Positions 5,655-40,433 of a stretch of DNA of 40,433 nucleotides are shown in pieces. A model generated the notes under the pieces. That model was given only the letters and a program-made list of their open reading frames with translations, was not told where the DNA came from and made no database searches. The number at the start of each line of letters is the position of its first letter. The first letter of the stretch is position 1. Position numbers and translations under genes: made by a program. Where the stretch lies: NCBI RefSeq assembly GCF_001418135.1, contig NZ_LIPQ01000233.1, positions 1 through 40,433 of the forward strand. The letters run 5' to 3'. The stretch is from Streptomyces aureus. GTDB lineage: Bacteria; Actinomycetota; Actinomycetes; Streptomycetales; Streptomycetaceae.

Positions 5655-7202
<1,548 letters not shown>

Positions 7203-25629: not shown

Positions 25630-26262
25630 TTGAATGACTCGATCGAGGAGCGCCCGACCCCGGCCCCCGGCAACGCGCGCCCCGGCGGCCGCACCGCCCG
25701 CACCCGGGCGGCCGTCCGCGACGCCGTCCTGACCGGTCTGTCCGAGCACGGCTACCCCGCCCTGACCGTGGAATACGTGGCGGAGCACTCGGGCGTCCAC
25801 AAGACGACGCTCTACCGCCGCTGGGGCAGCGTCGAAGGCCTCCTCGCCGACGCGCTCGACCTGGCGAACGAGGACGCCTGGACGCCACCGGACACCGGGA
25901 GCCTCTCCGGAGATCTGCACGCACTCGCGCACGAGGTCGTCGGCGCCTTCGGAGATCCGGCCGCAGGGGCGGCCCCCACCGCGTTCATCGGCGCGGCGTT
26001 CCAGTCCCCCCGGGCAGCGGAGGCCCTGCACACCTTCTACACCGAGCGCTTCCGGCGCTGCGAGGCCGTCGTCACCCGGGCCGTCGCCCGCGGCGAGGCA
26101 CCGCTGGGAACCGACGCGAACGCGGTCGTCCAGGGGGTCTCCGCACCGCTGTTCCTGCGGCTCTTCGTCACCCGCGAACCGATCGACGGCGCGCTCGCGG
26201 ACCAGACGGCACGCGTGGTTCTGGCGGGGGTCGAAGCGGGCGCGTACGTCGTCCCGGCGTAG
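25630..26262 (+). CDS. TetR-family regulator of the ABC-F operon
   Basis: A 210-residue TetR-type repressor. The helix-turn-helix is at about 25-70 (AVLTGLSEHGYPALTVEYVAEHSGVHKTTLYRRWGSVE, in pieces). The C-terminal ligand domain resembles TetR_C_11. The start is TTG 25630 (encoding MNDSIEERP), with GGGAG seven bases upstream; the ATG at 25634 is out of frame. It is divergent from the ABC-F gene and shares an operator region with it, so the ABC-F operon is its likely target. Confidence 0.9.
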   Translation: MNDSIEERPTPAPGNARPGGRTARTRAAVRDAVLTGLSEHGYPALTVEYVAEHSGVHKTTLYRRWGSVEGLLADALDLANEDAWTPPDTGSLSGDLHALAHEVVGAFGDPAAGAAPTAFIGAAFQSPRAAEALHTFYTERFRRCEAVVTRAVARGEAPLGTDANAVVQGVSAPLFLRLFVTREPIDGALADQTARVVLAGVEAGAYVVPA

Positions 26263-26317
26263 CTTTTCTCAGCCTCGACGCGTCAGGCCTCTCAGACCCT
26301 GCGGGGGCCGATGGCCC

Positions 26318-26506
26318 GCTCAGACCGAACGGCCGGCCCCGGTCGCTCAGACCGAACGGCCGGCCCCGGTCGCTCAGACCGAACGGCCGGCCCCGGTCGC
26401 TCAGACCGAACGTTCGGCCCGGTCCGCTCAGACCGAACGGCCGGCCCCGGTCGCTCACATCGAGCAGCCAGCCCGGATCCAGTCAGACCGACGGCCGGCC
26501 CCGGTC
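26318..26506. repeat. 27-bp tandem repeat, about seven units
   Basis: Seven head-to-tail 27-bp units fill the gap between the converging TetR and DUF4937-like genes. Units start at 26318, 26345, 26372, 26399, 26426, 26453 and 26480. Units 1, 2, 3 and 5 are identical, starting GCTCAGACCG, containing the palindrome GGCCGGCC and ending CCCCGGTC; units 4, 6 and 7 have diverged. Each unit can form a small ACCG...CGGT hairpin, so the array may also act as a termination zone. The length is a multiple of three and the array is open on the plus strand, but no ribosome site or homology supports translation. Confidence 0.93.
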
Positions 26507-26508
26507 GC

Positions 26509-27114
26509 TCAGACCGTCCAGGCCGGCTCGAGCTGCACCACGTCCCCGGCCAACGCCGCCACATCGGCCGCCGTCCTGGCCCGGAGCCCGAGCCGCTCGA
26601 TCCGCTCCACCCGGTACTTCCCGTGCTCCGCGGCGGACTGCCACATCGACAGCACCAGGAACTCGCTGCCCGGCGCCTCGCCGAACAGGCCCCGCAGCAT
26701 GCCGGGGGACCCGGCCATCGCCGGGTTCCACACCTTCTCCTGCATCAGCGCGAAGTGCTCGGCACGGTCCTCGTGGACACGGCAGTGCGCCACCCTCGCC
26801 ACGTCGGCGTCGGAGAACTTCGGCTCGAACCCGGTCTTCACGTCGAAGCGGTGGTCGAACAGCTTGACCTGGACGTCTTTGTAGGTGCCCATCTGCGCGG
26901 CCGCCAGACGATCATGCGAACGCGCCATGAACGAGTCGTAGAAGGCGCGGCTCTCCCAGAACCCGAAGACATGGGCGACGTCCGGCCGAGCCCGGCTCCA
27001 CCCGCCGCCCTGTCCCCGGAATCCCGGCTCACCGAGCAGCCCCGCCCATTTCCGCTGTCCCCGCTCGAACCCTCGACGGTCCATCACGGTGCAGCGAATC
27101 CACTTGACCAGCAC
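26509..27114 (-). CDS. YdbC-like DUF4937 protein
   Basis: A 201-residue protein made of two related alpha/beta halves like the antibiotic-biosynthesis-monooxygenase fold. The N-terminal half begins LVKWIRCTV and contains a Gly/Trp-rich segment (GFRGQGGGWSR) and HVFGFWESRAFYDSFM. The C-terminal half (about 105-200) holds VHEDRAEHFALMQEKVWNPAMAGSPGM and EFLVLSMWQSAAEHGKYR. This fold often binds haem or acts as a dimeric lyase or monooxygenase, but no function is assigned for DUF4937. The start is GTG 27114; the family usually starts M-x-KWIRC, which supports it even though the ribosome site is weak. Its last codons resemble one unit of the adjacent tandem repeat. Confidence 0.82.
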   Translation of the reverse strand: MLVKWIRCTVMDRRGFERGQRKWAGLLGEPGFRGQGGGWSRARPDVAHVFGFWESRAFYDSFMARSHDRLAAAQMGTYKDVQVKLFDHRFDVKTGFEPKFSDADVARVAHCRVHEDRAEHFALMQEKVWNPAMAGSPGMLRGLFGEAPGSEFLVLSMWQSAAEHGKYRVERIERLGLRARTAADVAALAGDVVQLEPAWTV

Positions 27115-38360: not shown

Positions 38361-40433
38361 TCAGGCGCGAAGGGGGTTGGTGACGGTGACATAGACGGAC
38401 TGGGTGTCGACGGGTCCGACGAGTTCGTCCATGCCGTGCAGGCGGGTGAGGAGGTTGGCCTTGCTGCGGAGGGTCGCGGCTTCCAGGAGGCGGTGCGGCA
38501 GGGGTGAGCCGAGGCTGGTGGCGGAGGTGAGGAAGCTGCGGAAGGCCGCGAGCAGGACGCGCTCGTCGGCGAGGTGCTGGGCGCCGAAGGCGCCGATCAG
38601 GCCCAGGACGTTGTTGATGCCGAGGTAGTAGGCGAATCGCTCGTCGGTGACCTGGTCGGAGACGAAGGTGTCGCTCGCGGCGCCGATGCCGGGGAGGCGG
38701 CTCTCCAGCTCACTCCGGTGGGACTCGCGGAAGTAGTAGCCCTGGTTGTCCCGGTAGCGCCCGCCGACCGGCCAGCCGTCGGGGTCGAGAAGCACCAGGG
38801 TGTTCTGCTGGTGGGCCTCCAGGGCGATGCCGGCGTGTCCGTCGAGCCAGAGGACAGGGCGGACGACCTGGTCGAGATAGCGGAGGAACCACTCGGCTGC
38901 GACAGCCGTGGTGGGACGGCCGGTGCGGAGGGCGAGGCGGCCGATGACGTCGGCGAGGCGGGAGCGCATGGCACTGGTTCCCGGCCAGGGCCGGGGGGCG
39001 GTGAGGGAGGCGATGCATACGGCGTCGTCGCCGGGCCCGAAGGGGTTGTGGCGAATCATCAGGTCGAGGCCGGGGACGGGGGCGCCGTCCGGGGTGTCGA
39101 CGGCGAGCCACGCGGGGTCGCGGACGATGTCGAAGCCGGGGTGGGCGGCCTGCCATTCGTCGACGAGGCCGGTTCGGAGCAGCCGGTGGACCTCGACGCC
39201 GCGGTGGAGTTCCTTGCGGAGGTTCTCGCGGCGCGAGTTGGTGATGCGCAGGCCGAGGGAGAGCTTGAGCATGGCCCGCGCGCCGGGGCGGTGCACGGTA
39301 CGGACGGAGGAGGTGGGGTGCCACGGGCTGCCGTGGAGACCGAGGTCGTGGAGGAGGCCGGCGTCGAGGAGTGCGCGGATGTCGGGGCGGTGCAGCAGCT
39401 CTCGGGCCTGCCAGGGGTGGACGGGCAGGGGTGCGGTTCCGGCGGGGAGCGCGAGCCCTTCGGCGAGGCCGATGGCGAGTTGCTCGGCGCTGACGGGACG
39501 GCCCTGTTCGGTCCAGCCGGAGTCGGAGGCCAGGAGGGAGGCGTCGACGGCGAGCCAGTGGAGGGGGAAGGAGCCGTGCAGTTCGGGTGAGTAGAGCCGG
39601 GCCTCCGCGTCGGAGAGGCCTTCGCGGCTCTTGGGCGTGGGGTGGAGGGGGTGGCCGAGCAGCAGGGACTGTTCCGCGGCGAGGAAGAGGTCGGCGTCCG
39701 GGTGCGGTTGAGGCGAGCGGCGGCGCTCGGTGAGGAAGTCGGCGGTGCGACGGGCCGAGTCGGCGACCCTGCCGACGAGTTCGGTGCCCTCGGGGCGGCC
39801 GGTCTCCCGGCTGAGCAGGGCGGCCACGGTCACGGCGTCGACGGCGGGGGCCGTGGCGGGGAGGCCTTCGAGGGCGGGCGCGCCGAAACGGTGCCAGCCG
39901 GTGGGCGACCAGTAGCGGACCGGGACGAGGAGGGCGGTGCCGCTGGCGTCGAGGGGGATGCGCAGGGTGGTGGAGCCGGGGGCCGGCAGGTTCTTCTCGC
40001 GGACCCAGCAGCGGAGGAGGTTCTCGACGGTGGCCGCGTCGGCGGCGCGCTGCGGATCCGGGTCGTCCAGGGGGTCGGCGCCGACCGGGAGGTGCGGGTT
40101 TGGGGCGGCGTCGCTCAGCGGGTCGGCTCCCGTGGCCGGGCGGTGCGGTCGTGGGTCGTACGGGCCGATGTGCTGGCGCGGGACCGTGACATCGGCGTGG
40201 CGGGGTGCGGCGGCGCCGGGCTCCGTGACATCGCGCTCCGTGGCGCCGGGGACCGCGGAGCCGGGGTCCGTGGAGCCGAGGTCCGTGGAGCCGAGGTCCG
40301 CGGAGCCGGGGACGGTACCGCCGAGGTCCGTGGAACCGGGGACCGTACCGCCGAGGGCTGGGGCGCGGAGGTCACCGTTGCCGAGGTCCGAGGGGCGGAG
40401 GTCCCCGTTGTCGAGGTCCGAGGTGGGGAGGTC
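38361..40433 (-). CDS. IucA/IucC-family NIS siderophore synthetase (partial, start outside window)
   Basis: The visible C-terminal 690 residues of a NIS synthetase. The frame is open to the window edge with no in-frame ATG, GTG or TTG between 39834 and 40433. The internal GTG 39833 cannot be the start, because family-conserved sequence lies upstream of it (TVENLLRCWVREKNLP and VRYWSPTGWHRFG, near 39870-40060). Other blocks are PVHPWQARELL, SVRTVHRPGARAMLKLSL, NSRRENLRKELHRG, EAHQQNTLVLLDPDG and RDNQGYYFRES. Before the conserved part lies a low-complexity segment (40200-40433) of repeats such as LGSTD and LGGTVPGSTD. The stop is at 38361, 55 bp before the acetyltransferase start. This is the first visible gene of the siderophore operon. 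Confidence 0.9.
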   Translation of the reverse strand, partial: DLPTSDLDNGDLRPSDLGNGDLRAPALGGTVPGSTDLGGTVPGSADLGSTDLGSTDPGSAVPGATERDVTEPGAAAPRHADVTVPRQHIGPYDPRPHRPATGADPLSDAAPNPHLPVGADPLDDPDPQRAADAATVENLLRCWVREKNLPAPGSTTLRIPLDASGTALLVPVRYWSPTGWHRFGAPALEGLPATAPAVDAVTVAALLSRETGRPEGTELVGRVADSARRTADFLTERRRSPQPHPDADLFLAAEQSLLLGHPLHPTPKSREGLSDAEARLYSPELHGSFPLHWLAVDASLLASDSGWTEQGRPVSAEQLAIGLAEGLALPAGTAPLPVHPWQARELLHRPDIRALLDAGLLHDLGLHGSPWHPTSSVRTVHRPGARAMLKLSLGLRITNSRRENLRKELHRGVEVHRLLRTGLVDEWQAAHPGFDIVRDPAWLAVDTPDGAPVPGLDLMIRHNPFGPGDDAVCIASLTAPRPWPGTSAMRSRLADVIGRLALRTGRPTTAVAAEWFLRYLDQVVRPVLWLDGHAGIALEAHQQNTLVLLDPDGWPVGGRYRDNQGYYFRESHRSELESRLPGIGAASDTFVSDQVTDERFAYYLGINNVLGLIGAFGAQHLADERVLLAAFRSFLTSATSLGSPLPHRLLEAATLRSKANLLTRLHGMDELVGPVDTQSVYVTVTNPLRA
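40233..40433 (-). repeat. Degenerate coding repeats at the synthetase N-terminus
   Basis: Short in-frame repeats, 15 bp (GTGGAGCCGAGGTCC on the plus strand, encoding LGSTD-type units) and 30 bp (units like LGGTVPGSTD and SDLGNGDLRA), run to the window edge. Unit copies differ at a few bases, as expected for replication-slippage repeats. Confidence 0.8.

What the first reader, a model, noticed from the sequence alone, without database searches (positions are those of the whole stretch)
26318..26511. 27-bp minisatellite that appears to grow from the 3' end of the neighbouring gene
Seen: each unit read on the minus strand ends GGTCTGAGC. The real 3' end of the DUF4937-like gene (…ACG GTC TGA GC) has the same TGA in the same register, with matching GCCGGC upstream. 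The gene end is thus a diverged unit, and four units are identical, implying recent expansion or homogenisation. The array fills the convergent gap and may work as a terminator.
Basis: partly seen in the sequence, partly recalled or inferred. Interest (0 to 1): 0.6.

Follow-up and report, generated by a model that had tools for sequence, protein, structure and literature searches.

The report
Tandem repeat spanning a gene end
In this Streptomyces genome the last few bases of a gene, its stop signal and the short DNA behind it appear to have been copied head to tail about eight times into the gap before the next gene, an ordinary kind of fast-changing repeat of which sampled Streptomyces genomes hold many other examples.

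Summary
Between convergent TetR and DUF4937 genes lie eight tandem units (26-28 bp, mostly 27; four identical), each ending in TGA in register with the DUF4937 stop. The unit is not dispersed: among 392 Streptomyces genomes searched it occurs only here, apart from two single 3-mismatch hits. The gene end is older than the array, being conserved across the genus. A sister species without the array carries, across its stop codon, a block matching one window unit at 17 of 18 bases; 0 of 828 unrelated gene ends score as well. So the unit is best read as gene end plus adjoining spacer. Two close relatives have related arrays with unit variants of their own.

Gene ends are not a special growth point: in 276 Streptomyces gaps of at least 130 bp, stop-spanning repeats occur 14 times and repeats at a mid-gap control point 18 times. 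Best explanation: a neutral slippage/recombination minisatellite, tolerated because the copied block carries the stop codon. A terminator role is possible but not shown: predicted folding is only modestly better than expected and the array has no hairpin-plus-U-tract site. No transcript or within-species copy-number data were available.

The parts
26292..26508 (-). Tandem array: eight units of 26-28 bp, each ending in TGA on the minus strand
26509..26516 (-). 3' end of the DUF4937 gene (CGGTC TGA), the coding part shared with the unit
26483..26508 (-). Unit 1 (26 bp), next to the gene stop
26455..26482 (-). Unit 2 (28 bp), diverged
26428..26454 (-). Unit 3 (27 bp), major type
26401..26427 (-). 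Unit 4 (27 bp), the variant that matches the stop-spanning block of the sister L099 at 17/18
26320..26400 (-). Units 5-7 (27 bp each), major type, identical to unit 3
26292..26319 (-). Unit 8 (28 bp), diverged, next to TetR
26263..26291 (.). Non-array spacer next to TetR; by eye similar in L098 and L102
   Evidence: sequence shown
26509..27114 (-). DUF4937 family gene (PF16291, E 4.7e-30), 201 aa, source of the gene-end part
25630..26262 (+). Convergent TetR-family regulator gene (longest ORF; start not settled)

Best explanation
A single-locus bacterial minisatellite. In an ancestor of this species group a block of about 26-27 bp spanning the DUF4937 stop codon (some 8 nt of coding end including TGA, and adjoining spacer) was tandemly duplicated into the convergent gap; this is inferred, mainly from the sister without the array. 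Because the block carries the stop codon, the protein stayed unchanged and the duplication was tolerated. Slippage or unequal recombination then changed copy number and homogenised units separately in different species, and the array was lost, replaced or never present in others (inferred). No host function is needed to explain it.
For: Units in register with the stop. Gene end older than the array: TGGACGGTCTGA in 53 of 133 distinct ortholog ends. The stop-spanning block of L099 matches window unit 4 at 17/18, score 31; 0 of 828 unrelated gene ends (best 30) and 0 of 143 orthologs outside the clade (best 29) reach 31. A five-species clade with support 100/100 has gaps of 246, 138, 135, 16 and 137 bp. 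L098 (27-28 bp units) and L102 (31-32 bp units) carry related units; mean unit identity is 0.80 within WINDOW and 0.77 within L102, against 0.66 between them. Duplications that take in the TetR stop are visible in the same gap of L025 and L053. Unit not dispersed. In 857 Streptomyces gene ends 28 carry a stop-spanning repeat, against 5 of 2571 with shuffled downstream DNA, so such events are common in the genus. In co-directional gaps 17 of 50 repeats span the upstream stop (9.3 expected by random placement) and 1 spans the start (9.3 expected), as expected if tolerance decides.
Against: The margin is thin (31 against 30 and 29), unit 4 was the better of two unit types tried, and with the major type L099 scores 25, reached by 1 of 828 unrelated ends and 7 of 143 orthologs. 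Global identity of gene end to window units is only 0.62-0.68. Unit identity within L098 (0.67) is lower than between L098 and WINDOW (0.71), so homogenisation is not seen there. L099 may have lost an array. No strain-level copy-number data; slippage is inferred. In convergent gaps stop-spanning repeats are not above random placement (10 of 27, 12.9 expected). Pairing of 4 bp around TGA sites in the arrays (13 of 16; other array positions 91 of 408) is not predicted by a purely neutral reading, although hairpins may promote slippage.
Confidence: 0.75

Rival explanations
1. The array is kept by selection as a bidirectional structural terminator or insulator: neighbouring units form GC-rich hairpins on either strand, with TGA in a small loop, that stop or protect both convergent transcripts.
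For: Two units fold to -36.5 and -36.4 kcal/mol on the two strands; repeats of shuffled units do as well in 38 of 500 and 3 of 500 cases. 13 of 16 TGA sites in the three arrays have 4-bp pairing around them, against 91 of 408 other array positions (G-U allowed; Watson-Crick only 7 of 16 against 11 of 408). Structured, U-poor 3' ends are reported in S. clavuligerus (PMC8269248, passages seen).
Against: A single unit is no better than shuffled (262 of 500 and 123 of 500 as good); five units: 34 of 150 and 9 of 150. Terminator scan: 1 found, outside the array, 0.6 expected. 14 of 46 convergent orthologs have gaps of 16 bp or less, with no room for an array. The gap sequence differs strongly between close relatives.
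Confidence: 0.15
2. The in-frame TGA copies are fail-safe stop codons against read-through.
For: In the window, in-frame stops at +54, +81, +108, +135, +162, +189 and +240 nt (first 240 nt examined).
Against: The nearest unit's TGA (+26) is out of frame; L098 has one in-frame stop and L102 two. A systematic study reports no compelling evidence of such selection in eubacteria (PMC6764699, abstract and outline seen).
Confidence: 0.02
3. A copy of a dispersed or mobile repeat family landed here.
For: None found.
Against: All 5 hits of a unit pattern in its own genome lie in the array. Of 392 genus genomes searched, 3 have a hit with up to 3 mismatches: this one and two with a single 3-mismatch hit. 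No Rfam family reaches its gathering score.
Confidence: 0.01
4. The visible copy number is partly an assembly product of a fragmented genome.
For: 707 contigs; three identical units in a row and a fourth nearby.
Against: Units 1, 2, 4 and 8 differ from the major type, and related arrays exist in the assemblies of two other species. This would affect the count, not the existence.
Confidence: 0.07

Closest known systems
Prokaryotic minisatellites / VNTR and MIRU loci (e.g. the rnc-fpg1 VNTR3239 of Mycobacterium tuberculosis, PMC2734929, passages seen)
   Same: Head-to-tail units of tens of bp between genes, imperfect copies, copy number differing between lineages.
   Different: Here the unit takes in a gene's stop codon in a convergent gap; within-species variation and a link to expression have not been tested. 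The M. tuberculosis locus lies upstream of a gene and its length was linked to expression.
Tandem repeat regions of archaeal Borg elements (PMC9879509, passages and section 9 seen)
   [quoted passage not shown] 4 legend).
   Different: Borg repeats are described as perfect and A-enriched and lie on extrachromosomal elements; this one is GC-rich, imperfect and in a bacterial genome.
Survey of satellites in prokaryotes (PMC6749651, passages seen)
   Same: Lists S. coelicolor with 38 satellites in 9.05 Mb.
   Different: The words 'stop codon' do not occur in its main text.

Membership tests
Bacterial minisatellite / VNTR | Head-to-tail array of units of about 10-100 bp | tested here: met
   Period 27, 7.4 copies; eight units by stop register
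Bacterial minisatellite / VNTR | Copy number varies between strains of a species | not testable with these tools
   Differs between species (eight units; about four in L098, about three in L102, none in L099); several strains of one species were not compared
Bacterial minisatellite / VNTR | Locus-specific unit, not a dispersed element | tested here: met
Intrinsic terminator | GC-rich hairpin followed by a U-tract | tested here: not met
   No such site in the array on either strand; one at 26245-26261 (+), at the TetR gene end, with 0.6 expected
U-poor (I-shaped) terminator | Stable hairpin at a mapped transcript 3' end | not testable with these tools
   Hairpins predicted with modest excess; no transcript-end data
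MIRU-like or mobile repeat family | Same unit at several loci | tested here: not met

The most novel reading that the evidence does not exclude
Gene 3' ends in Streptomyces recurrently seed tandem arrays that place a copy of the stop codon in the loop of each repeated hairpin, and these arrays evolve in concert as structural terminators or insulators of convergent transcription.
Probability: 0.12. Interest if true: 0.55.

Novelty: new member of a known kind. Interest (0 to 1): 0.33.

Why it matters
It offers an orthology-controlled case of how a bacterial minisatellite may be born: a duplication that carries the stop codon leaves the protein untouched. In the sample, 28 of 857 Streptomyces gene ends (3.3%; 18 of 857, 2.1%, at the higher score) carry a stop-spanning repeat, so such gaps may serve as fast strain markers, and gene-end repeats should not be read as conserved terminators without evidence.

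Tried and rejected
Rejected: dispersed repeat; Rfam RNA (three matches at E up to 1, all below their gathering scores); hairpin-plus-U-tract terminator. A first gene-end test gave 52 of 857 Streptomyces ends at score 28 or more, but it let strong arrays drag in a mismatching stop (18 of 52 kept a stop triplet in the second copy), so I replaced it with a strict test (at least 8 of 9 core bases; 28 of 857 at score 20 or more, 18 of 857 at 28 or more). The idea that gene ends are a hotspot failed: in the 276 gaps of at least 130 bp, 14 stops and 18 mid-gap points carry such a repeat at score 20, 12 and 16 at score 28 (two of the 276 rows are the window's own gap, and without them 13 and 17 of 274), and convergent gaps show 10 stop-spanning repeats against 12.9 expected by random placement. 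The ortholog lists come from the looser test: DUF4937 stop L001, L098 and L102 (of 45 convergent) and L055, L092 and L175 (of 101 co-directional); TetR stop L001, L025, L053, L071, L086 and L148. I rely only on those whose letters I saw. A covariation count of the TGA hairpin was not run, because the loop length varies (alignment made). Genes in the sampled stretches come from my own simple caller; for E. coli it found fewer genes than are annotated, so 0 of 152 is rough. The CDS-interior control did not check that every anchor lay inside the gene. The random-placement test used the repeats with z over 4. The eight paper searches that ran listed no paper that I recognised as an account of stop-spanning arrays in Streptomyces; I saw listings only, plus the parts of five papers named in the report.

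Full report
What is there. The window lies in a genome of 7.9 Mb in 707 contigs whose relatives are Streptomyces. A TetR-family gene (25630-26262, +) and a DUF4937 gene (26509-27114, -; PF16291, E 4.7e-30) converge on a gap of 246 bp. TRF finds a 27-bp array at 26317-26516 with the best score in the window. Read on the minus strand, the gene stop TGA is followed by eight more TGAs at spacings 26, 28, 27 x5, 28; four 27-bp units are identical. The eight units fill 217 bp.

Does the gene end belong to the array? Anchored at the stop, the last 30 nt score 21 against the doubled unit; 0 of 719 TGA-ending 30-mers elsewhere in the window do as well, although 523 of 80184 arbitrary 30-mers do. The upstream GCCGGC match alone is uninformative (14% of arbitrary 23-mers score as well). 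Of 828 unrelated Streptomyces gene ends, 3 end in CGGTCTGA. The gene end is old: 53 of 133 distinct ortholog ends finish in TGGACGGTCTGA and 130 of 133 use TGA. So the gene end most likely came first and the unit took it in.

Relatives. I gathered 177 loci carrying the gene, duplicates included; 148 were unique with at least 250 bp downstream: 46 convergent with TetR, 101 with a co-directional phosphoglycerate-mutase-like gene (name recalled from its sequence, no family search run), 1 other. In a tree of 28 rows, WINDOW, L098 (S. flavochromogenes), L102 (Streptomyces sp. CB02980), L099 (CB02009) and L071 (unnamed G309) form a clade with support 100/100; inside it only WINDOW with L098 is grouped (93/91). 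Their gaps are 246, 138, 135, 16 and 137 bp in that order. L098 and L102 have related units of 27-28 and 31-32 bp; L099 has none; L071 has short repeats (lag 14) resembling the TetR gene end. The stop-spanning block of L099 matches window unit 4 at 17 of 18 bases, score 31; 0 of 828 unrelated ends (best 30) and 0 of 143 orthologs outside the clade (best 29) reach that. With the major unit type L099 scores 25, reached by 1 of 828 and 7 of 143. Mean unit identity is 0.80 within WINDOW, 0.77 within L102 and 0.67 within L098, against 0.71 (WINDOW-L098), 0.66 (WINDOW-L102) and 0.65 (L098-L102) between species. That fits homogenisation in WINDOW and L102, not in L098.

Is the unit elsewhere? In its own genome 5 of 5 hits of a 24-bp pattern with up to 3 mismatches lie in the array. 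In 392 genus genomes, 3 have a match to a 27-bp unit with up to 3 mismatches: this one (4 hits) and two with a single 3-mismatch hit.

How special is it? I sampled 400 kb from each of two Streptomyces genomes, 230 kb of this genome plus the window, 200 kb each from two more distant actinobacteria and 250 kb of E. coli K-12. In 540 Streptomyces gaps of 20-500 bp, strong direct repeats (z over 4) occur in 27 of 99 convergent, 15 of 110 divergent and 50 of 331 co-directional gaps; the window array scores highest of the 540. Under the strict test 28 of 857 Streptomyces gene ends have a stop-spanning repeat, against 5 of 2571 with shuffled downstream DNA and 44 of 3412 anchors upstream in the genes; the two other actinobacteria gave 2 of 156 and 1 of 165, E. 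coli 0 of 152. Like for like, in the 276 gaps of at least 130 bp, 14 stops and 18 mid-gap points carry such a repeat. In co-directional gaps 17 of 50 repeats span the upstream stop (9.3 expected) and 1 spans the start (9.3 expected); in convergent gaps 10 of 27 span a stop (12.9 expected). The gap is thus a permissive zone, and a stop-spanning block is a tolerated case of it, not the sign of a separate growth engine.

Function. Two units fold at about -36.5 kcal/mol on either strand; repeats of shuffled units do as well in 38 of 500 (DUF4937 sense) and 3 of 500 (TetR sense). One unit is no better than shuffled (262 and 123 of 500), and five units give 34 of 150 and 9 of 150. TGA sites in the three arrays show 4-bp pairing around them in 13 of 16 cases, other array positions in 91 of 408, stops of unrelated genes in 81 of 856, and the DUF4937 stop of 29 of 148 orthologs; the units are related to each other, so these are not independent. 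The terminator scan is at chance level. Structured, U-poor 3' ends are reported in S. clavuligerus (PMC8269248, passages), so a terminator role cannot be excluded, but 14 of 46 convergent orthologs have gaps of 16 bp or less and manage without an array.

Comparison. This is a bacterial minisatellite. Repeats that start within an ORF end have been described in Borg elements (PMC9879509, section 9), and S. coelicolor appears in a survey of prokaryotic satellites (PMC6749651, passages). The eight literature searches that ran showed no account of stop-spanning arrays in Streptomyces, judged from listings only.

Shown: the array, its register with the stop, no copies elsewhere at the tested stringency (beyond two single 3-mismatch hits), the conserved gene end, the matching block in the sister, and related arrays in two relatives. 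Inferred: duplication of a stop-spanning block as origin, slippage or recombination as engine, and neutrality.

Noticed in passing
L071, gap downstream of the DUF4937 gene: In this close relative the same gap holds short repeats (lag 14) resembling the TetR gene end instead of the DUF4937 end (looser test).
   Followed up: partly
L025 and L053, same gap: Two-copy duplications that include the TetR stop codon are visible in two other Streptomyces species.
   Followed up: partly
L216:2202-2339, L199:1071-1124, L207:12891-13066, L225:2044-2517: Other Streptomyces gaps with repeats that span a gene's stop codon.
   Followed up: partly
window 6716-6820: 30-bp coding repeat in a gene with sigma-70 domains (regions 1.2 to 4); a weak match to histone H1-like HC2 lies below its curated cut-off.
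   Followed up: partly
window 40210-40433: 15/30-bp repeats at the contig end, in the N-terminal part of a long ORF (38361-40433, -); family not searched.
   Followed up: no
DUF4937 orthologs, C-terminus: Most of the 133 distinct ortholog ends code for Trp-Thr-Val and 130 of 133 use TGA.
   Followed up: no
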